DNA of 64,000 nucleotides from Nocardia sputorum. Its GTDB lineage: Bacteria > Actinomycetota > Actinomycetes > Mycobacteriales > Mycobacteriaceae. The stretch covers positions 1,054,001 through 1,118,000 of the forward strand of contig NZ_AP026978.1 of assembly GCF_027924405.1 (NCBI RefSeq), in the 5' to 3' direction. Numbering within the stretch: position 1 is the first letter of the stretch; each line of letters opens with the position of its first letter. The notes beneath the pieces are model-generated. The model was given only the letters and a program-made list of their open reading frames with translations, did not search any database and had not been told where the DNA came from. The position numbers were made by a program, and so were the translations under genes. Below, piece after piece: positions 28,942-53,500 of the stretch.

Positions 28942-29099
28942 CCAGCGCCTGCGGCGCTGGGTGTTCGCGGCCCTCTTGTGGCTCGCGTTTGCGCGGCCGC
29001 CGCTTGCTCCTTCGTCGCGGACGCGGCGGCCGCGCAAACGCGAGCCGGGCCGCGAACGGGTGATGCTCGGTCTCGCTTCGCTCGGAAGACGTGGTTGCG
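28942..29099 (-). repeat. Intergenic nested-stem repeat, copy R1
   Basis: About 157 bp, in reverse orientation to R2 and R3. Outer arms GTTCGCGGCCC (28963-28973) and GGGCCGCGAAC (29047-29057) enclose perfect 22-bp arms at 28980-29001 and 29025-29046 (begins GGCTCGCGTTTG), with a 23-nt loop. A separate small hairpin, CCAGCGCC/GGCGCTGG at 28942-28960, ends the unit. The other end has the conserved GAGCGAAGCGAGACCGAGCA (read on the minus strand). Reading on the minus strand it follows the aldehyde dehydrogenase gene. Long open frames across it are by-products of the repeat. Confidence 0.85.
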
Positions 29100-29171
29100 G
29101 TGCGCTGGGCGCGTCAGGGACGAATGCTGCGGCTCGCGGCACGCCGTTTCGGGAGGCGCCTCTGCTGTGGC

Positions 29172-29256
29172 CGTCGCTTGCTCTCGTCGCGTACGCGGCG
29201 GGCAATCGGTTGCGAGCGAGGCCGCGAACCGCGCATGCTCGGTCTCGCTCGCTCGG
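29172..29256 (-). repeat. Degenerate partial copy of the nested-stem repeat
   Basis: This stretch repeats the loop and right half of R1: CGCTTGCTCTCGTCGCG at 29175, then GGCCGCGAAC near 29220 and ATGCTCGGTCTCGCTCGCTC up to about 29254. Its left arm is decayed, so it cannot form the long stem. The whole 28914-29507 intergenic region is otherwise gene-free. Confidence 0.6.
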
Positions 29257-29469
29257 ACCGGGGTTCGGCCGAAGTAGTTGCGTGGGGGAAGCTTCGCCGA
29301 ATCGGGGATGCGGCACGTGGCTGTGCCGATCGAATGCCCCGGTTGCGGAGGTATCCGCCGCGCGGACGATGCCCGGCGGACTTCGTCCGGTGTCACAGCG
29401 CGTCGCTGTCGCCATTCGCGGCGCGTTCGCGTGGCGGATTGCCGCTGGTGCCACCTATGGCCCTGGGCC

Positions 29470-29494
29470 GGGTGCTCGACGACGTCGAGCACCC
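29470..29494 (-). terminator. Terminator hairpin of the aldehyde dehydrogenase gene
   Basis: GGGTGCTCGAC at 29470-29480 and GTCGAGCACCC at 29484-29494 form a perfect 11-bp stem with a 3-nt loop, beginning 13 nt after the stop codon on the minus strand. Confidence 0.7.
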
Positions 29495-29507
29495 GCCCGT
29501 GGGTTTC

Positions 29508-31016
29508 CTACTTGTGCCGGCCGTGCAGGAACGGAACGAGCTTGCGCAGCAGCTTCATCGTGGAGTCGGTGCGGCTGTAGCTCAGCAGCGCCATGCCCGG
29601 AACGGTGAAGCGCTGCACCGCGATCGAGTGCGGGCGGGCGAACTCGCGCAGACCCGGTTCGCCGTGGATGCGGCCGATGCCGGAATCGCCGACGCCGCCG
29701 AAGGGCAGGCCGGGGATGGCGGCGAAGGCGAGCACGGAGTTCACCGAGGTGGCGCCGACGCGCAGCCTGCGCGCGATGTCCAGGCCGTTCTTCTTCGAAT
29801 AGACCGCCGAGGACAGGCCGTACTTGGAGTTGTTGGCCAGTTGCACCGCCTCGTCGACGCCGTCGACGGTGCGGATGGTGATGGTCGGGCCGAAGGTCTC
29901 CTCGGCCACCGCCTCGGAGTTCTCGTCCACGTCCACCAGCACGACGGGCTCGATGAACGGCGCCTTGACCGACTCGGGACCGCCGAGCACCGCGGTGCCG
30001 CCGTTCTTCAGCGCGTCCTCGATGTGGCGGCGCACGATGTCGATCTGACTCGGCATGGTCATCGGGCCGTAGGACGCCTTGTCGCCGGAACCGGGCTTGA
30101 CGTCGGCGAGGATGCGCTTGACCTCCGCGACGAACTCCTCGCGCACCGAGCGGTCCACGTAGACCCGCTCGACACCGGCGCAGGTCTGGCCGCTGTTGGC
30201 GGTGGCCCCCCAGGCGACCGCGTCCGCCGCGGCCTTGATGTCGGCGTCGGCGGCGACGATCACCGCGTCCTTGCCGCCACACTCCAGCAGCACGGGGGTG
30301 AGCCGCTCCGCGGCGGCCGCCATGATCCGCTTGCCGGTGGCGGTGGAGCCGGTGAACGCGATCTTGTCGACCTCGGAGCGGACCAGCGCCGCGCCCGTCG
30401 CGCCGTAGCCGTTGATCGTGATGAAGACGCCTTCGGGCAGTTCGGGATTGGCCGCGGCGAACGCCTCGGCGAGGAAATTGCCGATGCCGGTGGAGTATTC
30501 GCTCGGCTTGAACACGACGGTGTTGCCCGCGGCCAGCGCGTAGGCGATGGAACCGTTCGGCGTGTAGACCGGGTAGTTCCACGGGCCGATCACGCCGACC
30601 ACGCCGAGCGGGCGCTGCTCGAGCCGTGCGCTGAAGTTGGACATCAGCGCGCCCGGGGACACCCGCTTGGGGCCGAGCACCTTCTTGGCGTTCTTGGCCG
30701 CCCAGGCGATGTGCTCGAGCGCGAGCATCAGCTCCAGGAAGGCGTCGTCGAGCGGTTTGCCGTTCTCGGCGTGGATCAACGCGCAGAACTTCTCCGAGTC
30801 CTGCACCAGCTTGCTCGACCAGCGCAGCAGATGGGTGCGCCGCTGGTCGAAACTCAGCGCGCCCCAGGTGGCGGCCGCTGCGCGGGCCTTGGCGACGGCG
30901 GCGGCAACCGCGTCGTCGTCGGCGATGACGTGCGTGCCGATCACCTCTCCTGTCGCCGGATTGACCGACGTCAGTGCCGTGTCGTGATCGGCCGGTTTGG
31001 TGTCGGTGGATGTCAC
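29508..31016 (-). CDS. NAD(P)-dependent aldehyde dehydrogenase
   Basis: A 502-residue aldehyde dehydrogenase oxidising an aldehyde to its acid. Catalytic Cys is in GQTCAGVERVYV near residue 290, the general base Glu in LLECGGKD near 257, the NAD-binding FTGSTATGKRI near 233, and the C-terminal LPFGGVGDSGIGR near 440. It is membrane-near in context only; a fatty aldehyde substrate, which would link to alkane oxidation, is possible but not shown. GTG at 31016 follows AAGAGGAGA. Divergent from the SRAP gene, 166 nt apart. Confidence 0.92.
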   Translation of the reverse strand: MTSTDTKPADHDTALTSVNPATGEVIGTHVIADDDAVAAAVAKARAAAATWGALSFDQRRTHLLRWSSKLVQDSEKFCALIHAENGKPLDDAFLELMLALEHIAWAAKNAKKVLGPKRVSPGALMSNFSARLEQRPLGVVGVIGPWNYPVYTPNGSIAYALAAGNTVVFKPSEYSTGIGNFLAEAFAAANPELPEGVFITINGYGATGAALVRSEVDKIAFTGSTATGKRIMAAAAERLTPVLLECGGKDAVIVAADADIKAAADAVAWGATANSGQTCAGVERVYVDRSVREEFVAEVKRILADVKPGSGDKASYGPMTMPSQIDIVRRHIEDALKNGGTAVLGGPESVKAPFIEPVVLVDVDENSEAVAEETFGPTITIRTVDGVDEAVQLANNSKYGLSSAVYSKKNGLDIARRLRVGATSVNSVLAFAAIPGLPFGGVGDSGIGRIHGEPGLREFARPHSIAVQRFTVPGMALLSYSRTDSTMKLLRKLVPFLHGRHK

Positions 31017-31182
31017 AGTGGGTCTCCTCTTGCCGTCTGCGGTGGACGGTCGATGCGCATGTCCGAGTGGACGGGCAGCCCGTCCTTCCGATGAGAGAAT
31101 GCTATGCCACAACTCTCAACAGGTCACCAGCTATGCACTAATTGTCTCCGACGCTGTCGGTGGCAAGTGGGACTATCGGGAT

Positions 31183-31971
31183 ATGTGCGGACGATATGCG
31201 ACCACGACCAACCCCGGCAGGCTCGCGGTCGAGTTGGATGCGATCGACGAGACCGGCCCCGCCGACCAGAGTTCTTTCACCAACTACAACGTCGCGCCGA
31301 CCACGCAGGTGCTCACCGTGGTGGAGCGGCACGACCAGGGCCGTGCGGACGACGACCCGAAGCGGCGCATCCGGCGCATGCGCTGGGGGCTGATCCCGGT
31401 GTGGACCAAGGCCGCCGAGCCCGGTGTGCCGGTCAAGGGCAAGCCGCTGTTCAACGCCCGCGCCGACAAGGCGGCCACCACGCCCTCCTTCCGCGACGCG
31501 GTGAAGTACCGGCGCTGCCTGGTGCCGATGGACGGCTGGTACGAGTGGCTCGTGGAGCCGAACGGCGAGAAGGGCCCGAAAGGAAAGGTCGCCAAGCATC
31601 CGTACTACATGGCGAACGCGGACGGTTCCCGTCTCTACATGGCCGGTCTGTGGTCGGTCTGGCGTGACCGGTCGCAGCCGGAGAGCGAGCCGCTGCTGTC
31701 GTGCACCATCCTGACCACCGACGCGGTCGGCGACCTCACCCGGATCCACGACCGGATGCCGCTGCCGATGCCGCAGGAGCACTGGGACGCGTGGCTGGAC
31801 CCGGATCACCCGGCCCCGGCGAGTCTGCTGGCGACGCCCTCCGAGGACGTGGTCGCCGGAATCGTGCCCCGCGCGGTGCCCACCCTGGTCAACAGCGTGC
31901 GCAACAACGGCCCGGAACTGCTCGCGCGAGTGGAGGATCGGAAGGAAGCCGAGCAGATCAGCCTGCTCTGA
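31183..31971 (+). CDS. SRAP (HMCES/YedK) abasic-site DNA-protein crosslinking protein
   Basis: A 262-residue SOS response-associated peptidase-family protein. It traps abasic sites in single-stranded DNA through Cys2 after removal of Met1; here the start MCGRYATT puts Cys at position 2, which fixes the ATG at 31183. Other conserved residues: Asn in NYNVAPTT near 35, Glu in GWYEW near 122, and His in RIHDRMPL near 193. The upstream open frame is not conserved. No LexA box is seen in the 166-nt divergent region. Confidence 0.94.
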   Translation: MCGRYATTTNPGRLAVELDAIDETGPADQSSFTNYNVAPTTQVLTVVERHDQGRADDDPKRRIRRMRWGLIPVWTKAAEPGVPVKGKPLFNARADKAATTPSFRDAVKYRRCLVPMDGWYEWLVEPNGEKGPKGKVAKHPYYMANADGSRLYMAGLWSVWRDRSQPESEPLLSCTILTTDAVGDLTRIHDRMPLPMPQEHWDAWLDPDHPAPASLLATPSEDVVAGIVPRAVPTLVNSVRNNGPELLARVEDRKEAEQISLL

Positions 31972-32393
31972 TCGCTCGCTGCCACACCGTCCTTTCCGGC
32001 ACCGTTCCGAGCGCCCAGCCCGGAGTCACAGCGCGGTCGAGCGCCACCCACGATATGGCTAGCTGCACCACGAGCCAGGCGTCCGGGCCCAACAGTGGAC
32101 ACGCGTCGAGGTGATCGCGACCGTCGTTCGCCACTACTCCCGGCTTCCGATCAACCCGCCTTCACCGGTGTCGGGCGCTGCGGCGTGGCAGACCCATCCG
32201 CGATTGGTCGAGAGGACGACCGATGCCACCGTCCAGCGAGCAACATCAGCCACCTGGTATCCCGGCAGAGTGCGAGAGCACGTCGCCGATCGACTGGCTG
32301 CCGTACCCCCGCGTAGACGTAACTTCCACTCGTCCTCCGGCAGTACTCCGCGAACTGAGGTGCCGGTGTCGCCGCTGCACGCGACCACACCAG
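31972..32393. other. Intergenic region after the SRAP gene
   Basis: A 422-nt stretch without a recognisable gene, terminator or operator. It leads into repeat copy R2. Short open frames on both strands lack codon bias and ribosome sites. Confidence 0.5.
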
Positions 32394-32550
32394 CCCGACT
32401 GCCGGTTCCGAGCGAAGCGAGACCGAGCATGCGCCGTTCGCGGCCCGGCTCGTGTCCGAGTGGCCGCCGCGTCCGCGACGAAGTCGCCAGCGGTGGCCAC
32501 TCGGACACGAGCCATAAGGGGCCGCGAACACGCAGCGCCGCAGTCGCTGC
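32394..32550 (+). repeat. Intergenic nested-stem repeat, copy R2
   Basis: A 157-bp unit. Outer arms GTTCGCGGCCC (32436-32446) and GGGCCGCGAAC (32519-32529) enclose perfect 19-bp arms, GGCTCGTGTCCGAGTGGCC at 32447-32465 and its complement at 32495-32513. The loop contains a third stem GCGAC-GAA-GTCGC. A 3' bulge ATAAG lies between outer and inner arms. The unit starts with GAGCGAAGCGAGACCGAGCA and ends with a small hairpin GCAGCG/CGCTGC (32533-32550), then A7. It sits between convergent genes: downstream of the SRAP gene and next to the 3' end of the secreted-protein gene. Confidence 0.88.
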
Positions 32551-32557
32551 AAAAAAA

Positions 32558-32863
32558 TTACAGCGAGCACTTCACGCTGGGTGAGGCGATATTGAGCCCG
32601 CACTTGATGATTCCGGCCACCAGGTCGATCAGCTTGGTGGTGACATTCCCGCTGAGTTTCTCGGCCTTCCCGGCCTTGTCGTCGCTCTTCGAGCCCTGAC
32701 CGTCGAAGTCGAAGACGGAATCGCTGACGTGCACGACCGGTGCGTTGTCCGGCGCTGCGGCGGCCTCCGGCGCGAGCAGCGTTACCGAACCGAGGGCCAG
32801 GACGAGAGCTCCGGACAACGCGACGATCACGGTGCGCACCCGCTGGTGGGTAGACATTCGCAT
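32558..32863 (-). CDS. Small secreted protein with two cysteines
   Basis: A 101-residue exported protein. The signal peptide has a basic start (THQRVR), a hydrophobic core (TVIVALSGALVLALG) and a likely signal peptidase I site after APEAAAA near residue 37. The mature part of about 64 residues ends in KCGLNIASPSVKCSL, whose two Cys could form a disulfide. No known domain. Start is ATG 32863 or ATG 32857; GAGAGGA lies just upstream. Common type in Nocardia and Rhodococcus; function unknown. Confidence 0.75.
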   Translation of the reverse strand: MRMSTHQRVRTVIVALSGALVLALGSVTLLAPEAAAAPDNAPVVHVSDSVFDFDGQGSKSDDKAGKAEKLSGNVTTKLIDLVAGIIKCGLNIASPSVKCSL

Positions 32864-32931
32864 CACATCCTCTCGAGTCGGGTCGATCTGGCCAGTTCAG
32901 TAACGCACAGATCGCGCCGATCGTGGCCGAA

Positions 32932-33426
32932 TTACGCCGATGTCACGGGCGCGGTCACCGCGGCGGTCAGCCGGATCAGGTCGGCGGGCGCCAGCTCGAT
33001 CTCCAGTCCGCGCCGTCCCGCGCTGCACAGCATCCGGTCCCAGGCCAGCGCCGAGTCGTCGATCACGGTGGGCAGCAGCTTGCGCTGGCCGAGCGGGGAG
33101 ATGCCGCCGAGCACGTATCCGGTGGTCTTCTCCGCCCGCGTCTTGTCCGCCATGCTCGCCTTCGACGCGCCGAGCGCGGCCGCCGCGGCTTTGAGCGACA
33201 ACGTGTTCGGCACCGGGAGCACGGCCACCGCGAGCGAACCGGTGGACAGTTCGATGACCAACGTCTTGAAGATCTGCGCGGCGGCGACTCCGAGTTCGGC
33301 GCCCAGCGCGTCGACCGCCTCGGTGCCGTAGGAGTCGGCGCGCGGATCGTGCTTGTAGGCGTGCACGCGATGGGCCACCTTCGCCTGGGTCAACGCGCGG
33401 ATCGCCGGGGTCGAGCCTGCTGCCAT
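32932..33426 (-). CDS. ybaK: YbaK/EbsC-family Cys-tRNA(Pro) deacylase
   Basis: A 164-residue trans-editing enzyme expected to hydrolyse Cys-tRNA(Pro). Family signs: HRVHAYKHDP near residue 19, QIFKTLVIE with the conserved Lys near 52, and GYVLGGISPLGQRKLLPTVID near 100. Starts at ATG 33426. It is divergent from sigH, and the 127-nt spacer includes the SigH-type promoter that reads away from it. Confidence 0.9.
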   Translation of the reverse strand: MAAGSTPAIRALTQAKVAHRVHAYKHDPRADSYGTEAVDALGAELGVAAAQIFKTLVIELSTGSLAVAVLPVPNTLSLKAAAAALGASKASMADKTRAEKTTGYVLGGISPLGQRKLLPTVIDDSALAWDRMLCSAGRRGLEIELAPADLIRLTAAVTAPVTSA

Positions 33427-33490
33427 GGCCAAACCCTAACGGCGGCCGCAACGTGTTTTCCCGCGGTCCGCCGCGAGCCCGTGATCGGCG

Positions 33491-33516
33491 GGAACACCGG
33501 ACGGGTCGCGCATGTT
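33491..33516 (+). promoter_or_regulatory. SigH/SigR-type promoter of sigH
   Basis: GGAAC at 33491-33495 and GTT at 33514-33516 are separated by exactly 18 nt, matching the GGAA(C/T)-N18/19-GTT consensus of SigR (Streptomyces) and SigH (mycobacteria). The expected start of transcription is about 30 nt ahead of the sigH GTG at 33554, so sigH is likely autoregulated during thiol-oxidative stress. Confidence 0.72.
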
Positions 33517-33553
33517 GTAGCCGGTACACCGCGCTCGGAAGGAATTCCACGGC

Positions 33554-34342
33554 GTGAGCAGGCCCTATGGAGATGTGAAGGAGATGCCTGTGCCCGTGCT
33601 GCTAGACGACCGTCCGGTGGGGACCGAGGTGTCCCCGGCGGACGGCGGATTCTCCTTCGATGTGCCGATGCCGGTAGATTTGGCAGGTACGGCGATCGAA
33701 GGGACAGGTGTGACGAGCGACGATGACGTGGCGGCCGACGATGTCGCCGCCGTCGACGATGCCGAGCTGGCGCAGCGGTTCGAACGGGACGCGCTCCCGC
33801 TGCTCGACCAGCTCTACGGCGCCGCGCTGCGCATGACCAGGAACCCGGCAGATGCCGAGGACCTGGTCCAGGAGACCTACGTCAAGGCCTATCAGGGCTT
33901 CAAGTCGTTCCGGGAGGGCACCAACCTGCGTGCCTGGCTGTACCGGATCCTGACGAATACCTACATCAACTCCTACCGCAAGAAGCAGCGCCAGCCCGCG
34001 CAGTATCCGACGGACGAGATCACCGACTGGCAGCTGGCCGCGACCGCCGAGCACACCTCGCAGGGACTGCGCTCGGCCGAGGTGGAGGCGCTGGACGCGT
34101 TACCGGACGACGACATCAAAGCCGCGCTGCAGGAACTGCCCGAGGAGTTCCGCATGGCGGTGTACTACGCCGATGTCGAGGGTTTCCCGTACAAGGAGAT
34201 CGCCGACATCATGGGCACTCCCATCGGTACGGTGATGTCCCGGCTGCACCGCGGCCGGAAACAACTGAAGGGTTTGCTCGCCGATGTCGCGCGCGAGCGT
34301 GGATTCAACCGTTCGGGGGAACGCCAGGAGGTCAAGCAGTGA
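33554..34342 (+). CDS. sigH: Redox-stress ECF sigma factor SigH (SigR)
   Basis: A 262-residue group 4 sigma factor. Region 2 contains [20 protein letters not shown] near residue 95 and [19 protein letters not shown]; region 4 contains [20 protein letters not shown] near 213. It directs thioredoxin, methionine sulfoxide reductase and heat-stress genes in relatives. The GTG at 33554 yields an N-terminal extension of about 52 residues before an alternative GTG at 33710; in Streptomyces such a long form (SigR') is unstable and made only during stress. The stop overlaps rshA (GTGA). Confidence 0.95.
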
Positions 34343-34629
34343 GTACCGAGCGGGACCCCGATATGGAACTCGATTGCACGGCGGTGCTCGCCGACGTGTG
34401 GTTGATGCTGGACGGGGAATGCGACGACGCGACCCGGGCGCGGTTGCAGCACCACATGGAGCACTGCAGTCCTTGTATCGAGGCCTACGGCATCGAGGAG
34501 AAGATCAAGAGCCTGCTCAGCCGCAAATGCGGCGGCGATCGCGCGCCCGCCTCGCTGCGTGAGCGGCTGACCATCGAGCTCCGCCGGACGGTCACCACGA
34601 AAGAGACTTCGGTCGAGACCTCCGAGTAG
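34339..34629 (+). CDS. rshA: Zinc-containing anti-sigma factor RshA/RsrA
   Basis: A 96-residue ZAS-family anti-sigma factor. The redox motif HMEHCSPC (H-x3-C-x2-C) is near residues 39-46, with earlier Cys at position 13 and another at 30. Oxidation of these thiols releases zinc and frees SigH. Start GTG overlaps the sigH stop by 4 nt, ensuring matched synthesis. M. tuberculosis has the same gene next to sigH. Confidence 0.94.
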
Positions 34630-34643
34630 CCGTGCGAAACGCG

Positions 34644-34678
34644 AGCGGCACGCCTTCCTTACGGAAGTGCGTGCCGCT
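34644..34678. terminator. Bidirectional hairpin between rshA and bL37
   Basis: AGCGGCACGCCTTCC and GGAAGTGCGTGCCGCT pair with a single bulge around TTAC. It lies 15 nt after the rshA stop and 26 nt after the bL37 stop on the other strand, so it can serve both. Confidence 0.65.
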
Positions 34679-34703
34679 TCGTGCTTGCGGGCCGAGCGTC
34701 AGC

Positions 34704-34778
34704 TCAGGCGTTGGGCCGCTTGCCGTGGTTGGCTGCGTTCCCCTTGCGGCTACGCTTCTTACGTCCGCGCTTACCCAT
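34704..34778 (-). CDS. bL37: Ribosomal protein bL37
   Basis: A 24-residue highly basic peptide, MGKRGRKKRSRKG then NAANHGKRPNA, matching the tiny actinobacterial large-subunit protein bL37 first seen in mycobacterial ribosome structures. AAGGGAGA stands 8 nt upstream of the ATG at 34778. It is too short for usual gene callers and is read opposite to sigH-rshA, divergent from the biotinyl-domain gene (90 nt). Confidence 0.9.
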   Translation of the reverse strand: MGKRGRKKRSRKGNAANHGKRPNA

Positions 34779-34868
34779 GAGTAGTCTCCCTTCTGATTGA
34801 AGGCCATTCTTTCACGTGTGGTTGGCTGTACCGTCAGCGGATACAGGCCAACGAGCGAATGGGGTGTC

Positions 34869-35084
34869 ATGGCTGAGGAAGTGCTCGCCGAACTGGTATC
34901 GGTCGTCTACCAGGTGGTGGTCAAGGAAGGCGACGAAGTTCAGGAAGGCGACACTCTGGTGATCCTCGAGTCCATGAAGATGGAGATTCCGGTGGTCGCG
35001 GAGTCCAGCGGCACCGTGACGTCGGTCGGTGTGCAGGAAGGCGACGCGATCAAGGCGGGCCACCTGATCGCGGTCATCTCCTGA
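34869..35084 (+). CDS. Single-domain biotinyl/lipoyl carrier protein (Rv3221c-like)
   Basis: A 71-residue biotin/lipoyl attachment domain with the modified Lys in ESMKMEIPV near residue 36. The M-K-M triplet indicates biotin rather than lipoate. M. tuberculosis TB7.3 is the counterpart. No carboxylase subunits are nearby, so its enzyme partner is elsewhere. It begins at ATG 34869 and is followed after 22 nt by the pdtaS gene, likely in one transcript. Confidence 0.92.
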   Translation: MAEEVLAELVSVVYQVVVKEGDEVQEGDTLVILESMKMEIPVVAESSGTVTSVGVQEGDAIKAGHLIAVIS

Positions 35085-35106
35085 TCGATTGCGGCGGTAG
35101 ATCTGC

Positions 35107-36621
35107 ATGGCGACACTGAGCGAGCTGCTGGCCGAGCACACCGACCTACCCGGCGTCGCCGTGGATCATCTGCAGCGGGTGGTGGGCGATTGGCAGCTGC
35201 TGGCCGATCTGTCCTTCGCCGATCTGCTGCTGTGGGTCGGTGCGGGACCGGTGACGGAGGGCGCGGACATCGTGTGTGTCGCGCAGTGCCGTCCCACCAC
35301 CGCGCCCACCGTGCACCAGGAGGACCTGGTCGGCACGACCGCCCGGAAGGCCGACCATCCGCAGGTGTTCGAGGCGCTGACCAGTGGCGATATCGTGCGA
35401 TCCGACAGTGAGGTCGAGGCGTCCGGCGTCTACCACCCGCATCCGGTGCACGCGGTCCGCGAGGCCATCCCGGTGCGCTGCGGCGACGACGTGATCGCGG
35501 TGCTGAGCCGGGACACCGATCTGCAACGCTCCCGGGTGCGCAGTCAGCTGGAGAGCGCGTACGTGGCGTGCGCGGACGATCTGTGCCAGATGATCGCCGA
35601 CGGCACCTTCCCCACCACCGAGGATCGCGCGGCGACCCATTCCAGCCCGCGCGCGGGGGATGGATTCATCCGGCTCGACACCGACGGCATCGTCGTCTAC
35701 GCCAGCCCCAACGCGCTGTCGGCCTACCATCGGATGGGCTTGCAGTCCGACCTGGCCGGGCAGGATCTGGCGGTCACCACCCGCTCGCTGATCACCGATC
35801 CGTTCGACGCCCAGGAAGTGGTCGGCGACATCCAGGCCGCGCTGGCCGGCCGGACCGGTCGGCGGATGGAGGTGGAGGCGCGCGGAGCCACCGTGCTGCT
35901 GCGCACCCTCGTGCTGCGCCCGCATGGGGAATTGGCGGGCGCCGCCGTGCTCGTCCGCGACGTCACCGAGGTCAAGCGACGTGATCGCGCGCTGCTGAGC
36001 AAAGACGCCACCATCCGGGAGATCCATCACCGGGTCAAGAACAACCTGCAGACCGTCGCCGCGCTGCTGCGCCTGCAAGCCCGCCGCACCGAGAACGAGG
36101 AAGCGCAGGTCGCGCTCACCGAATCGGTGCGCCGGGTCACCTCCATCGCGTCGGTGCACGAGATGCTGTCCATGTCGGTGGACGAAGAGGTAGATCTCGA
36201 CGAGGTCGTCGACCGGCTGCTGCCGATCATGGCCGACGTGGCCACGGTGCACACCGCGCGCATCAAGGTGCGCCGCGCCGGTTCGCTCGGCGTCTTCTCC
36301 GCCGAACGCGCCACCCCGTTGGTGATGGTGCTCACCGAACTGGTGCAGAACGCCATCGAGCACGCCTTCGATTCCGGCGAAAACGGCACGGTGACAATCC
36401 GTTCCGAGCGTTCGGCCCGCTGGCTGGACGTGATCATCAGCGACGACGGTCGCGGTCTGCCGCCCGGGTTCAGCCTGGAATCCTCCGACCGGCTCGGCCT
36501 GCAGATCGTCCGCACGCTGGTCACCGCCGAACTCGGCGGTTCCATCGGTCTGCATCCCGGCGCCGACATCGGCACCGACGCCGTGCTGCGCGTGCCGCTG
36601 GGCCGTCGTTCCGGCCGCTGA
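35107..36621 (+). CDS. pdtaS: Cytosolic sensor histidine kinase PdtaS
   Basis: A 504-residue soluble kinase. Order: GAF-like domain about 20-150, PAS-like domain about 180-300, then a HisKA_2 domain with phospho-acceptor His in EIHHRVKNNLQTVAALL near 303 and ATPase motifs LTELVQNAIEHAF (N box) and DDGRGLPPGF (G1). In mycobacteria PdtaS phosphorylates PdtaR, an antiterminator-type RNA-binding response regulator encoded elsewhere, and senses copper or nitric oxide. No transmembrane segment. ATG 35107 immediately after the biotinyl-domain gene. Confidence 0.92.
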   Translation: MATLSELLAEHTDLPGVAVDHLQRVVGDWQLLADLSFADLLLWVGAGPVTEGADIVCVAQCRPTTAPTVHQEDLVGTTARKADHPQVFEALTSGDIVRSDSEVEASGVYHPHPVHAVREAIPVRCGDDVIAVLSRDTDLQRSRVRSQLESAYVACADDLCQMIADGTFPTTEDRAATHSSPRAGDGFIRLDTDGIVVYASPNALSAYHRMGLQSDLAGQDLAVTTRSLITDPFDAQEVVGDIQAALAGRTGRRMEVEARGATVLLRTLVLRPHGELAGAAVLVRDVTEVKRRDRALLSKDATIREIHHRVKNNLQTVAALLRLQARRTENEEAQVALTESVRRVTSIASVHEMLSMSVDEEVDLDEVVDRLLPIMADVATVHTARIKVRRAGSLGVFSAERATPLVMVLTELVQNAIEHAFDSGENGTVTIRSERSARWLDVIISDDGRGLPPGFSLESSDRLGLQIVRTLVTAELGGSIGLHPGADIGTDAVLRVPLGRRSGR

Positions 36622-37031
36622 GTTCGAGCCGACGGAGTCCTCCCGATCGGCTCGGCCGGCCTCGGCAGGGCGCGGTCCTCGGCCGATGGTCGGATCCGTG
36701 GCTGATCCCGGTGGATCGATGTGTTGCTCGGAGGTCGCGGGTGGCCGCTGCTCACGTGCCGTTTGCGGCTTGCGGCGTAGTGAGTGCTCGAATGTCCGTA
36801 TCGAGCGGAATGCGAGGGTGCCGAGCGGATTGCGACCATCCCAACCCGATTGAGAACCAACCACTTTCCCACAGGTCTCGATCTTCCGCGAGTCGAACCG
36901 CGGCCGCTGTCGCGCGTAATCCGCGCAGCGGATATTGCGGTCCGGCGCAACCGCATTGGTCGGCTTCCGGGTTTCACCGCGAAGCGAGACCGATCATTTC
37001 CACTTCACTGTCCGGTGTGCAAAAACAACAC
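36622..37031. other. Gene-free region between pdtaS and whiB1 terminators
   Basis: About 410 nt between the 3' ends of convergent pdtaS and whiB1. It includes a short piece, CGCGAAGCGAGACCGATCAT at about 36979-36998, resembling the conserved arm of the nested-stem repeat, possibly a remnant. No ORF has family similarity or a ribosome site. Confidence 0.45.
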
Positions 37032-37057: not shown

Positions 37058-37109
37058 GAAATGCGTTACCGGGCCGGGCTGAATGGCCCGGTAAGGCTTC
37101 GTCGTCTGA

Positions 37110-42899: not shown

Positions 42900-44642
<1,743 letters not shown>

Positions 44643-45906: not shown

Positions 45907-45961
45907 CGCCGTCCGGGAGTTGCCTGTTACCCGCGGTACCGAATATGAGACTCTCTTCGCT

Positions 45962-47017: not shown

Positions 47018-47044
47018 GCCGCGGCGAGTATTACGCTGGGCCGC

Positions 47045-47746
47045 ATGGGAGCACAGTCACCTGCCGCGTTAGGTGTTTCGTCGACCGACCCAGCGAACCT
47101 CTTCATCCCCGCGAGCCATCCCGGCGTGACCGACCTGTTCGCGGTGCTCGCCTACGGCGAGATCTCCGCGTTCTACCGGCTGGCCGAGGAAGCCAAGCTG
47201 TCGCCGACCTTGCGGGGCAAGGTGGCGGTGGCGACGATGGCCGCGGCCGAGATGGAGCATTTCAAGACGCTGGAGTCCGCGCTGGCCGCGCGTGGTGCCG
47301 ATGTCTTCGACGCCATGGCGCCGTTCGTGCGCGCGCTGGACGACTATCACGCCTCGACCGACCCCTCGACGTGGCTCGAGTCGATGGTGAAGTTCTATGT
47401 CGGTGACGGCATCGCCGCGGACTTCTACACCGAGATCGCGGGCGCGTTGACCCCGGACATCGCCGCGGTGGTCCGCGACGTGCTCGCCGAGACCAGTCAT
47501 TCCGAGTTCGTCGTCGAGGAGGTGCGCCGGGCGGTCACCGAAAGCCGTTCCGAACGCGACCGGCTCACGCTCTGGGGCAGGCGGCTGCTCGGTGAGGCGA
47601 TCACGCAGGCGCAATTCGTCATGGCGCAGCGCGACGAGCTCACCGATCTGGTCCTCACCGCCACCGGCGACCTCAACGGCATCGCCGCGCTGATCGAGCG
47701 GATGCAGGACAGCCACGCCGAGCGTATGGCGGTACTCGGTATCTGA
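47045..47746 (+). CDS. Ferritin-like fold protein (MiaE-like, Rv3210c-like)
   Basis: A 233-residue four-helix-bundle protein. EISAFYRLAEEAKLSP near residue 37 and AAAEMEHFKTLESALAARG near 76 give the E...ExxH metal pattern; a second set is DFYTEIAG and ETSHSEFVVEEV near 150. The fold matches MiaE-type diiron tRNA hydroxylases, but tRNA activity is not shown. ATG 47045, 27 nt after the hydrolase gene; convergent with the XRE gene (6 nt). Confidence 0.8.
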   Translation: MGAQSPAALGVSSTDPANLFIPASHPGVTDLFAVLAYGEISAFYRLAEEAKLSPTLRGKVAVATMAAAEMEHFKTLESALAARGADVFDAMAPFVRALDDYHASTDPSTWLESMVKFYVGDGIAADFYTEIAGALTPDIAAVVRDVLAETSHSEFVVEEVRRAVTESRSERDRLTLWGRRLLGEAITQAQFVMAQRDELTDLVLTATGDLNGIAALIERMQDSHAERMAVLGI

Positions 47747-47752
47747 GCGCGG

Positions 47753-48592
47753 CTACGCGTTCGCCGCGCGGTTGGGCACCAGCCGCAAACCGGGCGCGTG
47801 GGTGCTCGCCCGGTCGACCAGCCAGACGACGACGCTCTGGTCCCGGCGGTCGGATTCCAAGTTCTCGAACGGCACCTCGACCATGCCGTGCACCGGATGG
47901 TCCAGGTGCAACGTGCCGGCGCCGGGCGCGCCGACCCGATGCGGCTTCCAGCGGTCGGCGAAACCCGGCAGCCCGCGCAGCGCCTCGATCGTCTCGAGCA
48001 GCGCGTCGTCGCCGGGCCAGTGGAGTTTGGCGCGGCAGAGCGCGGAGGTGAAGGTGTCGGCGGCTTCCTCCCAGTTGCGCAGGACGCGCCGTGCCGCGGG
48101 GTGCGCGAAGGTATACCAGGCCAGGTTGGGCTGATCAGGTCCGTCCAGCAGGCCCAGCGGGGCGGCGAAATCGGCCCACGCCTGGTTCCAGCCCAGCACG
48201 TTCAGTCTGCGGCCGACCACGAAGGCCGGTGTCGGCTGCAACGCCTGCAGGATCGTCTCGATCGTCGCGGCCACCTGTTCCTGTGCGGCTTCGCCACCGG
48301 GGCATCGGGATTCGTTGCCGGAAGCCATCGCGAGCATGCCGAAGTACTGGCGGTCGTCGCCGCGCAGCAGCAGCGCGTCGGCCAACGCGTCGATCACCGC
48401 GAGCGACGGATTGGTGTCGCGCCCCTGCTCCAGGCGGGCCAGGTAGTCGGCGCTGACGCCCGCACGGACGGCGACCTCCTCGCGACGCAGCCCGGGTGTC
48501 CGGCGGCGTCCGCCCTCGGGCAGGCCGACGTCCGACGGCCGTAGCTCGGCGCGCCGGGCGATGAGGAACTCCGCGAATCCGTTAGTGGCCAT
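47753..48592 (-). CDS. XRE regulator with MmyB-like ligand domain
   Basis: A 279-residue regulator. The HTH is near residues 30-75 (TPGLRREEVAVRAGVSADYL, then ARLEQGRDTNPS), followed by a PAS-like MmyB ligand-binding domain (about 110-265) of the type that binds fatty acids. It is divergently placed to a yceI-like gene, the usual target for such regulators. Start ATG 48592; an in-frame ATG at 48601 is possible. Candidate operators lie in the 100-nt divergent region. Confidence 0.87.
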   Translation of the reverse strand: MATNGFAEFLIARRAELRPSDVGLPEGGRRRTPGLRREEVAVRAGVSADYLARLEQGRDTNPSLAVIDALADALLLRGDDRQYFGMLAMASGNESRCPGGEAAQEQVAATIETILQALQPTPAFVVGRRLNVLGWNQAWADFAAPLGLLDGPDQPNLAWYTFAHPAARRVLRNWEEAADTFTSALCRAKLHWPGDDALLETIEALRGLPGFADRWKPHRVGAPGAGTLHLDHPVHGMVEVPFENLESDRRDQSVVVWLVDRASTHAPGLRLVPNRAANA

Positions 48593-48620
48593 AGGTCCCA
48601 TCGTGCCCGGTCCGAGGACG

Positions 48621-48681
48621 GTTATCCGCGCCCTGTCAGGTCCAGGATAACGGCGGTCTGGCTACCGGACCGCGGTCCGGT
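48621..48681. promoter_or_regulatory. Inverted repeats between the MmyB-like regulator and yceI genes
   Basis: GTTATCC at 48621-48627 and GGATAAC at 48645-48651 form an inverted repeat with a 17-nt gap; ACCGGACCGCGGTCCGGT at 48664-48681 is a perfect 18-bp palindrome. Both lie between the divergent genes, so they are good candidates for autoregulation and control of yceI. Confidence 0.55.
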
Positions 48682-48694
48682 CATTGTCGGAGGC

Positions 48695-49234
48695 ATGACA
48701 TCTACCTCGGAATCCACCACGCTGAAGTCCGGTTCGTGGGCGCTGGACGCCGCGCACTCCTCGGTCGCCTTCACCATCCGCCATCTCGGCATCGCCAAGG
48801 TCCGTGGCGGATTCACCCGGTTCGAGACCGAATTCGTGGTCGACGAGTCGGGCGCGGCCACCGTGGGCGCGACGATCTACCTCGACTCCTTCGACACCGG
48901 CAACGCCGACCGGGACGCGCACATCCGCACCGCCGACTTCCTCGACGTCGCCAATCGCCCCACGCTGACCTTCCGCGCCAACCATCCGGTGCTCGTCGCG
49001 GAGACCTTCGAGGTCGAGGGCGAGGCCACGCTCGGCACGATCACCAAGCCGGTCACCCTGGAGGTCGAGTGGGGCGGGGTGCAGGACTTCGGCCCGACCG
49101 GCGACCGGCACGCGGGCTTCTCCGCCACCGGCACCATCAAGCGAACCGATTTCGGCGTCGGCGGCCCGCTGCCCGGCATGCTCAGCGACACCGTGAAGAT
49201 CGAGCTCGAGATTCAGCTCATCGAGCCGAAGTGA
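48695..49234 (+). CDS. YceI-family lipocalin-like protein
   Basis: A 179-residue YceI domain protein, a beta-barrel that binds isoprenoid or other lipids. Signature: GSWALDAAHSSVAFTIRHLG near residue 13, IRTADFLDVANRPTLTF near 78, and KRTDFGVGG near 150. No signal peptide, so it is probably cytoplasmic, as in several actinobacteria. GGAGG directly precedes the ATG at 48695. Divergent from the MmyB-like regulator. Confidence 0.92.
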   Translation: MTSTSESTTLKSGSWALDAAHSSVAFTIRHLGIAKVRGGFTRFETEFVVDESGAATVGATIYLDSFDTGNADRDAHIRTADFLDVANRPTLTFRANHPVLVAETFEVEGEATLGTITKPVTLEVEWGGVQDFGPTGDRHAGFSATGTIKRTDFGVGGPLPGMLSDTVKIELEIQLIEPK

Positions 49235-49300
49235 GCTTCTCCGGCGGCCACCACTAGCCTGGACTCGACAGCACAGGACTCTCAGGTTCGGAGGTTGGCC

Positions 49301-49528
49301 GTGGAGGTCAAGATCGGTATTTCGGATAGCCCGCGCGAGCTGGTGATCAGCAGCGCGCAGACCCAGGAAGAGGTCGAGGCGCTGGTGTCCGGTGCGCTCG
49401 GCGGCGACGGCGGCGTCTTGGCTCTCACCGACGAGAAGGGCCGCAAGTTCCTGATCCAGGCTTCGAAGGTCGCCTACGTCGAGATCGGCTCGACCACCGG
49501 CGGCCGCGTCGGTTTCGCCGCGGTCTGA
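49301..49528 (+). CDS. DUF3107 protein (TB9.4-like)
   Basis: A 75-residue beta-rich protein, MEVKIGISDSPRELVISS then GRKFLIQASKVAYVEIGSTT, of the DUF3107 family (Rv3208A/TB9.4). GTG 49301 follows GGAGG by 7 nt; a TTG two codons upstream is less likely. It faces fasR across a shared terminator. Function unknown, conserved in the order. Confidence 0.87.
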   Translation: MEVKIGISDSPRELVISSAQTQEEVEALVSGALGGDGGVLALTDEKGRKFLIQASKVAYVEIGSTTGGRVGFAAV

Positions 49529-49551
49529 CTCCCGGTTTCCGGCCGACAAGC

Positions 49552-49594
49552 AACGAGCCCCTGTTCCCCGATCGCTCGGGGGCAGGGGCTCGTT
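49552..49594. terminator. Bidirectional terminator between DUF3107 and fasR genes
   Basis: AACGAGCCCCTG (49552) and CAGGGGCTCGTT (ends 49594) form a perfect 12-bp stem, with extra CCCCG/CGGGG pairing inside the loop. It lies between two convergent genes. Confidence 0.8.
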
Positions 49595-49609
49595 CGTCGT
49601 TGTAACCGC

Positions 49610-50320
<711 letters not shown>

Positions 50321-50457
50321 TTATCTCATGAACGATACCCGGTTGTTGCCCGCCCGCGGATCGGGGCCGGACAACTGGTGCCACCCGGAGACACATTGTC
50401 GCACCGAAGGGGCCGCCGATGTGCCCGTCAGTGGGGATCCGCTGCTGTGAGACTCTG

Positions 50458-51732
50458 ATGACCGTGACCGACCGACCGGAGCGACCACCCGGCGGGCGGC
50501 GTGGTGCGCGCCGCCCGGCTGGCTCCGGCGCGCCCGGTTCCGTAGGGTCGGACAGCATGGCGAGAACCTGGCCAGAGGCGCGAACGGATGGTGCGGCTCG
50601 GACCGGCGCAGCCAAGCGTTCCGGAGCAGGCGGCGGGTCGCCCGGCCGCAGGACGAGCAAGCGCAAGCGCGGCACGGCACCCGAAACTCCCGCGCCGCAG
50701 CCTGATTCGGACCGGCAGCAGTCCGATCAGGACGATGTCGAGGTCTACGATCCGCTCGGCCTCTACTCCCACAAGGCGGAGCGATCCCATCAGCCGCTGC
50801 GCGCCCGCTGGGATCCCACGTCACCCGACGACGGCAGGGACCGCGGTCGTCCCGAACGGGACGCCAAGAAGCAGAGCGCCCTCGGCAGATTCGTCTCCAC
50901 CTACGGCTGGCGGGCATACGCGTTGCCCGTTCTGGTCGTGATCACCGTTCTGGTCGCCGTCGACGCGGTGCGCGCGGCCGACACCGCAAGCTCTGCCGGA
51001 TCGGATCCGGGGCTCGGGCGACTCAGCCCGGCCACCGCCACCGCGGGCATCATCGGCGCCCCGCCGGGCGACGGGCACTTTCCCACCGATCTCCCCACCG
51101 GAGCACTGCCCGACGGCGGCGGGTTCGCCGAGACCGGCGCCGGCTCCTGGCACGTGGTGCCCGGCACCACGGCCCAGATCGGCACCGGAACCGCGACCGT
51201 CTTCCGCTACACCGTGGAGATCGAGAACGGCGTGGACACCTCCGGCCTGGGCGGTGACGAGGCCATCGCCAAGATGGTCGATTCCACCCTGGCCAATCCG
51301 AAGAGCTGGGTGCACGACCCCAAGTTCGCGTTCCGCCGGGTCGACCAAGGCGACGCCGACTTCCGCGTCTCGCTCACCTCACGCGGCTCCAGCCGCAAGG
51401 AGTGCGGTTTCGACATCCCGATCGACACCTCCTGCTACAACGCCGACGATCGCCGCGTGGTGCTGTCGGATGTGCGCTGGGTGCGCGGCGCGCTCGCCTT
51501 CGAAGGCGATATCGGCTCCTACCGGCAGTATCTGATCAACCACGAGGTCGGCCACGCCATCGGCTATCACCAGCACCAGGCATGTGAGACCGACGGCGGG
51601 CTGGCGCCGGTGATGATGCAGCAGACCTTCGGCACCAAGAACGACGACATCGCCGCCCTCGATCCGCACGGCGTGGTCCCGATGGACGGCAAGCGCTGCC
51701 GTTTCAACCCCTGGCCCTACCCGCGGGGGTAA
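50458..51732 (+). CDS. DUF3152 membrane-anchored zinc metalloprotease-like protein
   Basis: A 424-residue protein. A charged, Pro/Arg-rich cytoplasmic N-terminal part of about 150 residues precedes one membrane segment (YALPVLVVITVLVAV, near 158-172); the extracytoplasmic domain has the zinc motif NHEVGHAIGYHQHQAC near 360. Rv3207c is the mycobacterial equivalent. Start is uncertain within the variable N-terminus: ATG 50458, GTG 50464 or ATG 50557. No terminator is obvious before moeZ. Confidence 0.83.
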   Translation: MTVTDRPERPPGGRRGARRPAGSGAPGSVGSDSMARTWPEARTDGAARTGAAKRSGAGGGSPGRRTSKRKRGTAPETPAPQPDSDRQQSDQDDVEVYDPLGLYSHKAERSHQPLRARWDPTSPDDGRDRGRPERDAKKQSALGRFVSTYGWRAYALPVLVVITVLVAVDAVRAADTASSAGSDPGLGRLSPATATAGIIGAPPGDGHFPTDLPTGALPDGGGFAETGAGSWHVVPGTTAQIGTGTATVFRYTVEIENGVDTSGLGGDEAIAKMVDSTLANPKSWVHDPKFAFRRVDQGDADFRVSLTSRGSSRKECGFDIPIDTSCYNADDRRVVLSDVRWVRGALAFEGDIGSYRQYLINHEVGHAIGYHQHQACETDGGLAPVMMQQTFGTKNDDIAALDPHGVVPMDGKRCRFNPWPYPRG

Positions 51733-51879
51733 GGGCGGGGCGGCTGTCACGCCGTATCCGGTATACGGAACGATGGACGGGAAGAACGGCCCGGTCGCCG
51801 GTGTTGCACAGTGGACCCAGCCCGCCACGGGCGTCATACCGCCGCAGCGATCGGCCAAGCGATTCGAGGAGTCCTGGAC

Positions 51880-53064
51880 GTGTCATCACCCAAGTCCCTG
51901 CCGCCACTTGTCGAGCCGGCTGCGGAACTGACCAGGGATGAGGTAGCCCGCTACAGCCGACACCTGATCATCCCCGATCTCGGCGTGGACGGACAGAAAC
52001 GTCTGAAGAATGCCAAAGTGCTGGTGATCGGCGCCGGTGGCCTCGGCTCGCCCGCCCTGCTGTACCTGGCCGCGGCGGGTGTCGGCACGCTCGGCATCGT
52101 CGAGTTCGACGAGGTCGACGCCTCGAACCTGCAGCGTCAGATCATCCACGGCGAATCCGACATCGGCCGCCCGAAGGCCGACAGCGCGCGCGACTCCATC
52201 CTGGAGATCAACTCCGGCATCGATGTCCGGCTGCACAAGCTCCGGCTGGAACCGGAGAACGCGGTGGAGCTCTTCCGCGAATACGACCTGATCGTGGACG
52301 GCACCGACAACTTCGCCACCCGCTACCTGGTCAACGACGCCGCGGTGCTCGCGGGCAAGCCGTACGTGTGGGGCTCGATCTACCGCTTCGAGGGTCAGGT
52401 CTCGGTGTTCTGGGAGGACGCCCCGGACGGGCGCGGCATCAACTACCGCGACCTGTACCCGGAAGCCCCGCCGCCCGGCATGGTCCCGTCCTGCGCCGAG
52501 GGCGGCGTGCTCGGCGTGCTGTGCGCGTCGATCGGTTCGGTGATGGTCACCGAGGCCATCAAGCTGATCACCGGCATCGGCGAGCCGCTGCTGGGCCGTC
52601 TGATGGTGTACGACGCACTGGACATGAACTACCGCACCATCAAGCTGCGCCGCGATCCGGAGCGTCAGCCGATCACCGAGCTGATCGATTACGAGGCGTT
52701 CTGCGGCGTCGTGTCCGAGGAGGGCCAAGCGGCCGCTGCCGGGTCCACCATCACCGCGCGCGAACTCGAGGAGTTGCTGTCGTCGGGTAAGGACATCGAG
52801 TTGATCGACGTGCGCGAGCCGGTCGAGTGGGACATCGTGCACATCGAGGGCGCCAAACTCATCCCGAAGGACCGCATCCTGTCCGGCGAGGCGCTGGCCG
52901 AGCTGCCCCAGAACCGTCCGATCGTGCTGCACTGCAAAACCGGTGTGCGCTCCGCCGAGGCCCTGGCCGCCCTGAAACGCGCGGGCTTCTCCGACGCCAC
53001 CCACCTGCAAGGCGGCGTGATCGCCTGGGCCAACCAGGTGGACAAGTCGCTACCGGTGTACTGA
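51880..53064 (+). CDS. moeZ: Adenylyltransferase/sulfurtransferase MoeZ
   Basis: A 394-residue fusion of an E1-like adenylating domain and a rhodanese domain. ATP-binding GAGGLGSPALLYLAAAGVG near residue 50, SNLQRQIIHGESDIG near 85, and the rhodanese active-site Cys in VLHCKTGVRSAEAL near 350. MoeZ activates small sulfur-carrier proteins (CysO, MoaD, ThiS-type) and adds sulfur to them, feeding cysteine, molybdopterin and other pathways. GTG 51880 follows GAGGAG by 9 nt. Ends at a hairpin terminator. Confidence 0.95.
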   Translation: MSSPKSLPPLVEPAAELTRDEVARYSRHLIIPDLGVDGQKRLKNAKVLVIGAGGLGSPALLYLAAAGVGTLGIVEFDEVDASNLQRQIIHGESDIGRPKADSARDSILEINSGIDVRLHKLRLEPENAVELFREYDLIVDGTDNFATRYLVNDAAVLAGKPYVWGSIYRFEGQVSVFWEDAPDGRGINYRDLYPEAPPPGMVPSCAEGGVLGVLCASIGSVMVTEAIKLITGIGEPLLGRLMVYDALDMNYRTIKLRRDPERQPITELIDYEAFCGVVSEEGQAAAAGSTITARELEELLSSGKDIELIDVREPVEWDIVHIEGAKLIPKDRILSGEALAELPQNRPIVLHCKTGVRSAEALAALKRAGFSDATHLQGGVIAWANQVDKSLPVY

Positions 53065-53073
53065 GGCGGTAGA

Positions 53074-53102
53074 CGCCGACGCCCCCTACCGGGGCATCGG
53101 CG
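53074..53102 (+). terminator. moeZ terminator hairpin
   Basis: CGCCGACGCCCC at 53074-53085 pairs with GGGGCATCGGCG at 53091-53102 with a single mismatch and a 5-nt loop, starting 10 nt after the moeZ stop. Confidence 0.65.
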
Positions 53103-53342
53103 GAGCGAGAACGCGTCGATCGCCGTCGCTCGGGCAGAAGCTGGGGCGCGGCAAGTGCTCGGCCGTCGGAATGGCCTGCGGTGTAGACGCTCAGTGTCAA
53201 TGTGAGCGGCCGCTGCTGGATTCAGTGGCTGGTGCCCGCTGACCGGGATCCATCATGGCCGTGTGCACTCGGTGTGCGCGTTGCCGAATCCCGATCGCCG
53301 AGACCCCCGGTAGACGCGATGGGCGCGGAGCGACAACATATG

Positions 53343-53500
53343 CCCGACCACCGGTTTCGAGCGAAGCGAGACCGAGCATGTGCCGTTCGCGGCCCGGCTC
53401 GTGTCCGAACGGCCGCCGCGTACGCGACGAAGTCGCCAGCGGCGGTCGCTCGGACACGAGCCACAAGAGGGCCGCGAACACGGCGCGCCGGAGGCGCGCC
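53343..53500 (+). repeat. Intergenic nested-stem repeat, copy R3
   Basis: A 158-bp unit. Outer arms GTTCGCGGCCC (53385-53395) and GGGCCGCGAAC (53469-53479) enclose 22-nt arms at 53396-53417 and 53441-53462 (GGCTCGTGTCCG core), with one A-C mismatch and one G-T wobble. The loop keeps GCGACGAAGTCGC, a third stem. Conserved GAGCGAAGCGAGACCGAGCA precedes it. A terminal palindrome GGCGCGCC-GGA-GGCGCGCC (53482-53500) follows. It lies downstream of moeZ and just before the Rv3205c-like gene. The 53065-53527 gap has no gene of its own. Confidence 0.88.

What the first reader, a model, noticed from the sequence alone, without database searches (positions are those of the whole stretch)
28942..53500. 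A family of intergenic 157-bp nested-stem repeats with covarying arms
Three near-full copies (28942-29099 reversed, 32394-32550, 53343-53500) plus fragments (29172-29256; 36979-36998) share invariant outer parts (GAGCGAAGCGAGACCGAGCA; GTTCGCGGCCC...GGGCCGCGAAC) but have different inner arms. In R1 and R2 the inner arms remain perfectly paired, 22 and 19 bp; in R3 they have one mismatch and one wobble. The small terminal hairpin also changes sequence while staying palindromic. Kept pairing with changed sequence points to selection for structure, in DNA (cruciform) or RNA. All three copies lie downstream of a gene in the same orientation relative to that gene. I do not recognise the family.
Basis: seen in the sequence. 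Interest (0 to 1): 0.78.

Follow-up and report, generated by a model that had tools for sequence, protein, structure and literature searches.

The report
Nocardia nested-hairpin DNA repeat family
The bacterium's chromosome carries dozens of copies of a short non-coding sequence that folds into nested hairpins, found so far only in the genus Nocardia, whose copies often stay at the same gene borders in different species while their sequence is replaced and their pairing is kept; it looks like an undescribed family of mobile or self-renewing DNA.

Summary
A covariance model gives 107 rows at E<=1 in this genome: 37 opposite-strand shadows and 70 candidate copies, 42 of them at about 1e-12 or better. 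118 of 150 same-genus genomes match by DNA. In a sample of 201 genomes of the family, 13 match, all of this genus. Rfam has nothing at its cut-offs; five paper searches list no description, but listings were capped. Pairing is kept through double changes (32 copies from 21 genomes: 27 pairs, 188 cells, 0/500 shuffles as high). Mismatches favour G.T over A.C on the element's plus strand, so one single strand probably matters.

The real rule is that the 3' end abuts the next gene: 26 of 26 convergent stop codons lie within 22 nt. Distant species share sites, but arm sequences there are mostly no more alike than elsewhere. Newer 3' ends are joined inside older copies. Best reading: enzyme-less mobile DNA that re-enters its own old copies. 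No enzyme was found; the mechanism is inferred.

The parts
28929..29138 (-). Copy R1 with its 5' region (upstream edge approximate) and tail
   Evidence: (model hit 28938-29083 minus in window coordinates)
29064..29083 (-). R1 conserved 5' 20-mer
29047..29057 (-). R1 outer stem, 5' strand
29023..29046 (-). R1 inner left arm (24 nt)
28980..29003 (-). R1 inner right arm (24 nt)
28963..28973 (-). R1 outer stem, 3' strand
28942..28960 (-). R1 terminal hairpin, GCA triloop
29172..29256 (-). Older decayed copy upstream (5') of R1, same orientation; 20-mer and left half recognisable, right half largely lost
   Evidence: (match at G000:C1:1083184-1083257)
32355..32563 (+). Copy R2 with its 5' region (upstream edge approximate) and tail; the stop codon of the convergent ORF 32558-32839 (minus) lies inside the tail
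32410..32429 (+). R2 conserved 5' 20-mer
32436..32446 (+). R2 outer stem, 5' strand
32447..32470 (+). R2 inner left arm
32471..32489 (+). R2 apical part with GCGAC-GAA-GTCGC mini-hairpin
32490..32513 (+). R2 inner right arm (one G.T against the left arm)
32519..32529 (+). R2 outer stem, 3' strand
32532..32550 (+). R2 terminal hairpin, GCA triloop
53304..53513 (+). Copy R3 with its 5' region (upstream edge approximate) and tail
53359..53378 (+). R3 conserved 5' 20-mer
53385..53395 (+). R3 outer stem, 5' strand
53396..53419 (+). R3 inner left arm
53439..53462 (+). R3 inner right arm (one A.C, one G.T against the left arm)
53469..53479 (+). R3 outer stem, 3' strand
53482..53500 (+). R3 terminal hairpin, GGA triloop
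36977..37033 (+). Degenerate copy: 20-mer with 3 mismatches and tail AAAAACAACACAG

Best explanation
A genus-wide family of non-coding interspersed elements of about 190-215 bp, most likely mobile DNA without genes of its own, whose functional form is one single strand folded into a large nested hairpin plus a small terminal hairpin about 13 nt before a fixed 3' end (ACACAG-like). Shown: copies, fold, covariation, strand asymmetry, recurrent 3' end, abutment of the 3' end on the neighbouring gene, sites shared between distant species with replaced arm sequence, newer 3' ends joined inside older copies, and one site that is cleanly empty in two species. Inferred: that new copies arrive through a folded single-stranded intermediate handled by a host or unlinked enzyme, and that they preferentially enter places already holding an older copy, so that sites persist while contents are renewed.
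For: Copy number and spread. Covariation: 26 own copies, 12 pairs changed on both sides, 0/500 shuffles as high for four of five measures; 'further pair types' 221/500, not exceptional; 32 copies from 21 genomes, 27 pairs, 188 cells, score 0.377 against 0.125, 0/500 for all five. Strand: G.T 37 against A.C 4; 74 against 16 in 104 copies leaving out one near-fixed G.T position; 63 against 28 distinct local contexts, p=3e-4; 55 against 13 in the diverse set. Triloop GNA in 333 of 383 terminal hairpins with all four bases at N. 3' end: an ACACAG-like motif in 251 of 383 copies, ending 11-14 nt after the hairpin in 244 of these. Nested joints: 36 rows among 288 tails run straight from the tail into internal element sequence; I judge 33 real (two are re-reads, L185 looks spurious). 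They recur at GG^CCGCGAAC (16, of which 12 exactly there) and GG^CCCGGCTCG (6). In the 27 rows that show a second terminal hairpin it differs from the first in 23, is the same in 3 and unclear in 1, by eye; rows are not independent events. Clean empty site at 4922184 in two relatives. Shared sites: 11 of 29 fetched G115 copies have the same 3' gene in the same orientation as an own-genome copy, in 9 of the 11 within 8 nt of the same distance. Arm identity at 11 shared sites (9 in G115, 1 in G067, 1 in G142) is mostly no higher than to other copies of that genome; one of them ranks second of 29.
Against: No enzyme: Y1 transposase and reverse transcriptase models have no match in this genome; the Y2 search rang nowhere, controls included, so it shows nothing. 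No longer, gene-bearing version in 362 held stretches, 1.7 Mb with redundancy. Only one clean empty site, and its pattern (present in G106 and G059, absent in G082 and G026) does not follow overall similarity. At 1010334 the two empty relatives already contain AACACAG, which fits deletion as well as insertion. No fresh whole-element insertion at a virgin site was dated. 132 of 383 copies lack a recognisable ACACAG-like motif. Copies lie towards the origin, in conserved chromosome, unlike typical insertion sequences (recalled). Outer-stem mismatches show no G.T excess (6 against 9). Copies of the own genome are not more alike (0.810) than own against G115 copies (0.821).
Confidence: 0.57

Rival explanations
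1. Host-functional structured RNA or 3'-UTR element kept at chosen gene borders by selection and homogenised by gene conversion among copies; mobility is rare or past.
For: Sites shared between distant species, 9 of 11 with the 3' junction within 8 nt of the same distance; in close relatives the 20-mer is found in 39 of 53 site-by-genome comparisons (3 more were cut by contig ends); covariation; G.T excess fits RNA of the plus strand; origin-proximal distribution.
Against: The neighbour at the 3' end is convergent in 26 and co-directional in 21 of 47 copies, so there is no single regulatory position; the other 14 of 53 comparisons lack the 20-mer, some with remnants, one site cleanly empty in two relatives; copies with the hairpin deleted persist; no Rfam family at its cut-off.
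Confidence: 0.2
2. No transposition: the long palindrome is a DNA break or replication hot spot; repair from other copies and template switching between arms renew and re-pair the sequence at fixed sites.
For: Joints recur at two points that face each other across the outer stem (between pairs 34:114 and 35:113); hairpin-deleted copies; double changes between close relatives at one site, e.g. 6818663; replaced arms at shared sites.
Against: Does not explain the recurrent ACACAG end, the polarity (older copies upstream, newest next to the gene), the empty site or the G.T over A.C asymmetry.
Confidence: 0.16
3. Bidirectional transcription terminator module.
For: Strong hairpins directly after a stop codon at 26 of 47 own copies.
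Against: 21 of 47 sit in front of a gene start instead; the plus strand has an A-rich, not T-rich, tail.
Confidence: 0.04
4. REP/REPIN element moved by a RAYT-type Y1 transposase.
For: Palindromic, intergenic, many copies.
Against: No Y1_Tnp match in this genome and in 28 of 148 of the genus only, while 118 of 150 carry the repeat; far longer than REPs; no GTAG foot in the sequences I read.
Confidence: 0.03

Closest known systems
ERIC / RUP / Correia / RU-type intergenic repeats (recalled; for RU elements the abstract start of PMC2759123 was seen in the listing)
   Same: Non-coding, about 100-200 bp, intergenic, hairpin-forming, many copies, taxon-limited, enzyme unknown or in trans
   Different: Here no terminal inverted repeats, a recurrent 3' end about 13 nt after a GNA hairpin, lineage-specific but paired arms, renewal at sites shared across species
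REP / REPIN with RAYT (abstract starts of PMC3733652, PMC3116915 and PMC2817692 seen in search listings)
   Same: Palindromic extragenic DNA
   Different: Length 190-215 bp against 20-40 bp; no Y1 transposase in this genome
[quoted passage not shown]
   Same: No target duplication, palindrome near the 3' end, tandem arrays, non-autonomous copies
   Different: No Rep/helicase or Y2 enzyme found (search uninformative); bacterial; contains a hairpin of about 95 nt
Extraordinarily stable DNA mini-hairpins (passages of PMC10527192 read, which speak of short DNA or RNA hairpins; that C-GNA-G loops are the DNA type is recalled)
   Same: The terminal hairpin, many apical hairpins and the 5' GAGCGAAGCGAG motif show C-GNA-G loops on the plus strand
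   Different: A structural motif, not an element family; it does not separate DNA from RNA by itself

Membership tests
REP/RAYT | Y1 transposase (PF01797) in the genome | tested here: not met
   none in own genome, 28 of 148 in the genus; the control search rang in 5 of 14 genomes
REP/RAYT | 20-40 bp palindrome with GTAG or CGTC tag | tested here: not met
   length; no such tag at the hairpin foot by reading; definition from the title and abstract start of PMC3733652
MITE | Terminal inverted repeats | tested here: not met
   by reading: 5' region ..GACGCGCCCAGC.. and 3' end ..ACACAG are not complementary; the exact 5' end is uncertain
MITE | Target-site duplication | tested here: inconclusive
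   none visible at the one clean empty site, 4922184; a single site
Retroelement / SINE-like | Reverse transcriptase available in the genome | tested here: not met
   PF00078 none in own genome, 52 of 148 in the genus; the control search rang in 3 of 14 genomes
Helitron / IS91-like | Short hairpin shortly before a fixed 3' end, no TIR, no TSD | tested here: met
   (TSD judged at one site only)
Helitron / IS91-like | Y2 HUH transposase | tested here: inconclusive
   no match in 148 genomes, but no control genome rang either
Known Rfam RNA | Score above a family's gathering cut-off | tested here: not met
   ten matches below cut-off, mostly miRNA precursors (best MIR5534, 45.6 bits against 79), as expected of a generic long hairpin
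Integron attC | AAC..GTT core sites and a neighbouring integrase | not tested
   by eye the outer stem reads GTT..AAC, the reverse order; core-site rule recalled

The most novel reading that the evidence does not exclude
A bacterial selfish DNA without genes whose folded plus strand is the moving form and which homes into its own older copies: it occupies the same gene borders across a genus while each lineage rewrites the hairpin arms, a concerted turnover known for tandem arrays but, as far as I recall, not described for dispersed bacterial repeats.
Probability: 0.27. Interest if true: 0.85.

Novelty: new variant of a known kind. Interest (0 to 1): 0.62.

Why it matters
It is a large repeat family (up to 123 model matches per genome at E<=1e-6, opposite-strand shadows included) in a genus that includes opportunistic pathogens (recalled), and it appears undescribed. 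It gives a natural data set for telling selection on single-strand structure from DNA palindrome repair, and makes it testable how gene-less bacterial repeats persist: by mobility, by conversion, or by host use.

Tried and rejected
REP/RAYT and reverse-transcriptase mobility: no enzyme in this genome. Helitron/IS91 enzyme: search uninformative. Gene-bearing long version: none among 362 held stretches. Replication-strand bias: none (25 of 50 own, 30 of 60 G115, 8 of 17 G142). Fixed orientation to the upstream gene: rejected. Plasmid or phage carriage: one distant hit in a 2.66-Mb N. farcinica record classed as plasmid, no phage hit. Terminator as main function: rejected. Literature: five searches on Nocardia or bacterial intergenic repeats list no description of this repeat (20 of 527 papers listed; 20 of 59; 4 of 4; 10 of 17; none found); subscription papers are mostly not held.

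Cautions. Gene calls are from my own codon-usage caller. G.T/A.C cells share ancestry, so p-values are optimistic, position 1 holds 19 of the 55 A.C cells and is probably an alignment-edge artefact. The 383 copies include copies of the same site in related species. In one search only printed hits of G115 (60) and G142 (17) were used. One search used 47 own copies; others, found only by the 20-mer or as older tandem copies, were left out. 29 G115 copies and 17 G142 copies, chosen from the best-scoring printed rows, were fetched, out of 123 and 62 matches that include shadows; best-scoring copies may be the youngest. One search dropped nothing, but I set aside three of its 36 rows by eye. In one search own copies under 130 nt were left out, so 2 of the 11 G115 shared sites were not compared.
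Full report
What was checked. The three copies and two fragments are present as described. A 20-mer pattern search found 45 sites with at most one mismatch in the 7,431,165-bp genome and none for the reversed pattern; blastn of R2 gave 70 matches, 28 of them covering most of the query. A covariance model built from 26 copies gave 107 rows at E<=1 in this genome: 37 are opposite-strand shadows of the palindrome and 70 are candidate copies, the weakest of which may be chance; 42 reach about E 1e-12 or better. I used the 56 candidates at E<=1e-3, merged to 50 sites, for the distribution.

Anatomy. On the plus strand of the element: a variable 5' region; a conserved 20-mer (main own subfamily) or a CGAGTCTTACGAG module (other subfamilies; in this genome 6 of 7 copies of a second subfamily have it within two mismatches); an 11-bp outer stem; a 24-bp inner stem with an apical mini-hairpin; a short spacer; the outer strand; a 19-nt terminal hairpin; and a 13-nt A-rich tail ending in an ACACAG-like motif. 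At the 4922184 site two relatives have no element: a 12-nt spacer lies between a stop codon and a TAGGCT box. In two filled versions (own genome, G059) 52 and 63 nt lie between the stop codon and the first 20-mer, so the whole is about 190-215 bp; no target duplication is visible and most of the native spacer is missing. The terminal loop is GNA in 333 of 383 distinct copies, N being C 220, A 100, G 8, T 5, and the closing pair is C-G in 359; the apical loop found by the same script is GNA in 129 of 340, because many own copies have an unpaired apical part. That some short hairpins are extraordinarily stable was read in passages of PMC10527192 (DNA or RNA); that GNA loops are the DNA type is recalled.

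Covariation. Own genome, 26 copies: 95.8% of cells paired against 90.6% in shuffles, 12 pairs with changes on both sides against 6.7, score 0.172 against 0.081, none of 500 shuffles as high; the count of further pair types is not exceptional (221/500). Across the genus, 32 copies from 21 genomes: 97.1% against 83.1%, 27 pairs against 16.1, 188 cells against 52.3, score 0.377 against 0.125, none of 500 for any measure; slid structures pair 30-44%. The outer stem also covaries (4 of its 11 pairs). Shuffles do not keep relatedness, so these are not probabilities.

Strand. G.T exceeds A.C on the plus strand: 37 against 4, 74 against 16 in 104 copies leaving out one near-fixed G.T pair, 63 against 28 distinct contexts, 55 against 13. 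On the minus strand these would be A.C. Against: outer-stem cells show 6 against 9, and the frequent classes are few and inherited.

Where copies sit. With genes called by my own caller, the stop codon of a convergent 3' neighbour lies -3 to 22 nt from the model end in 26 of 26 own cases; in G115 14 of 16 lie within 13 nt (the others at 41 and 319), in G142 and G067 6 of 6 within 14 nt. A co-directional 3' neighbour starts at a median of 51 (own), 66 (G115) and 87.5 nt (G142/G067). The 5' side is far away: medians 209-479 nt. The 5' neighbour has the same orientation in 26 of 47, 19 of 28 and 11 of 19. Copies thin out towards the terminus: decile counts from origin to terminus 7 7 5 11 7 8 2 3 0 0, KS p=2.6e-5; the printed hits of G115 (60) and G142 (17) show the same (dnaA). 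There is no replication-strand bias.

Sites stay, sequence changes. The 20-mer (up to 3 mismatches) is found in 39 of 53 site-by-genome comparisons, three more being cut by contig ends; several of the 14 misses still hold remnants, and numbers of tandem copies differ. Of 29 fetched copies of the more distant G115, 12 have a 3' neighbour matching that of a copy in another genome; for 11 it is an own-genome copy, all in the same orientation, 9 within 8 nt of the same distance. At the 11 shared sites compared (9 in G115, one each in G067 and G142) arm identity is mostly no higher than to the other copies of that genome, one pair ranking second of 29. Copies within G115 and G142 resemble each other more (means 0.893 and 0.935) than they resemble own copies (0.821, 0.765); own copies among themselves average 0.810. 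So lineage-specific arms are clear for G142, while the own genome is not homogenised relative to G115.

Renewal. Older copies lie 5' of newer ones in the same orientation and keep the 20-mer and left half but mostly not the right half; these were found by the 20-mer, so copies that lost it would be missed. Among 288 distinct tails, 36 rows continue at once into internal element sequence (33 real by my reading). The joints cluster at GG^CCGCGAAC (16, of which 12 exactly there) and GG^CCCGGCTCG (6), points facing each other across the outer stem. In 27 rows a second terminal hairpin follows; it differs from the first in 23, is the same in 3 and unclear in 1, which speaks for a newer copy joined to an older one rather than simple duplication (comparison by eye, rows not independent).

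Spread. 118 of 150 same-genus genomes match by DNA, with only five candidates scored per genome. In 201 genomes of the family from 31 genera, 13 match, all of this genus, while at least two genomes of the genus do not (strict filters). A pattern scan of the species collection stopped at 120 stretches; the 80 titled ones are all Nocardia. Six genomes searched with the model give 123, 94, 74, 62, 19 and 1 matches at E<=1e-6, shadows included.

Enzymes and neighbours. No Y1 transposase and no reverse transcriptase match in this genome; the Y2 search is uninformative; no gene-bearing version was found. R1 lies between an aldehyde dehydrogenase gene and an EPSP synthase gene, R2 between an SRAP gene and a short ORF without Pfam match, R3 between a ThiF-rhodanese gene and an ORF without Pfam match.

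Verdict. A real, genus-wide, apparently undescribed repeat family. Mobile or self-renewing DNA with a folded plus strand is the best reading (0.57); host RNA with gene conversion (0.2) and palindrome repair without movement (0.16) remain open. On checking, I moved 0.01 from the first to the last, because one shared-site pair is unusually alike and the recount of differing hairpins fell from 24 to 23 of 27.

Noticed in passing
G000:C1 5945886, 5947223, 123577, 7206520, 5257944, 5837606, 6404372: A second subfamily in this genome with different arms; 6 of the 7 carry a CGAGTCTTACGAG-like 5' module in place of the 20-mer. The same module is in 16 of 17 fetched copies of genome G142, two of them with one change.
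   Followed up: partly
G000:C1 1182910, 6129214, 1451985, 5437904, 1010334: Copies that lost the inner hairpin (1010334 nearly everything) while keeping the 20-mer and a 3' end.
   Followed up: partly
G000:C1 about 2.2-4.3 Mb: Terminus-proximal chromosome nearly free of copies.
   Followed up: yes
G000:C1 1546403, 3635857, 4426131, 4433732, 4508077, 5144630, 6998570: Seven equal-scoring matches to the DnaA model in 281-aa frames, perhaps the ATPase of a repeated insertion sequence.
   Followed up: no
Site of own 6810268 in G106, G026 and G059 (L139, L164, L165): A hairpin like CTGCGTGTTCGCG..GCGAACACGCAG after the stop codon of the left gene; it may be a remnant of an old copy or a native terminator.
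   Followed up: no
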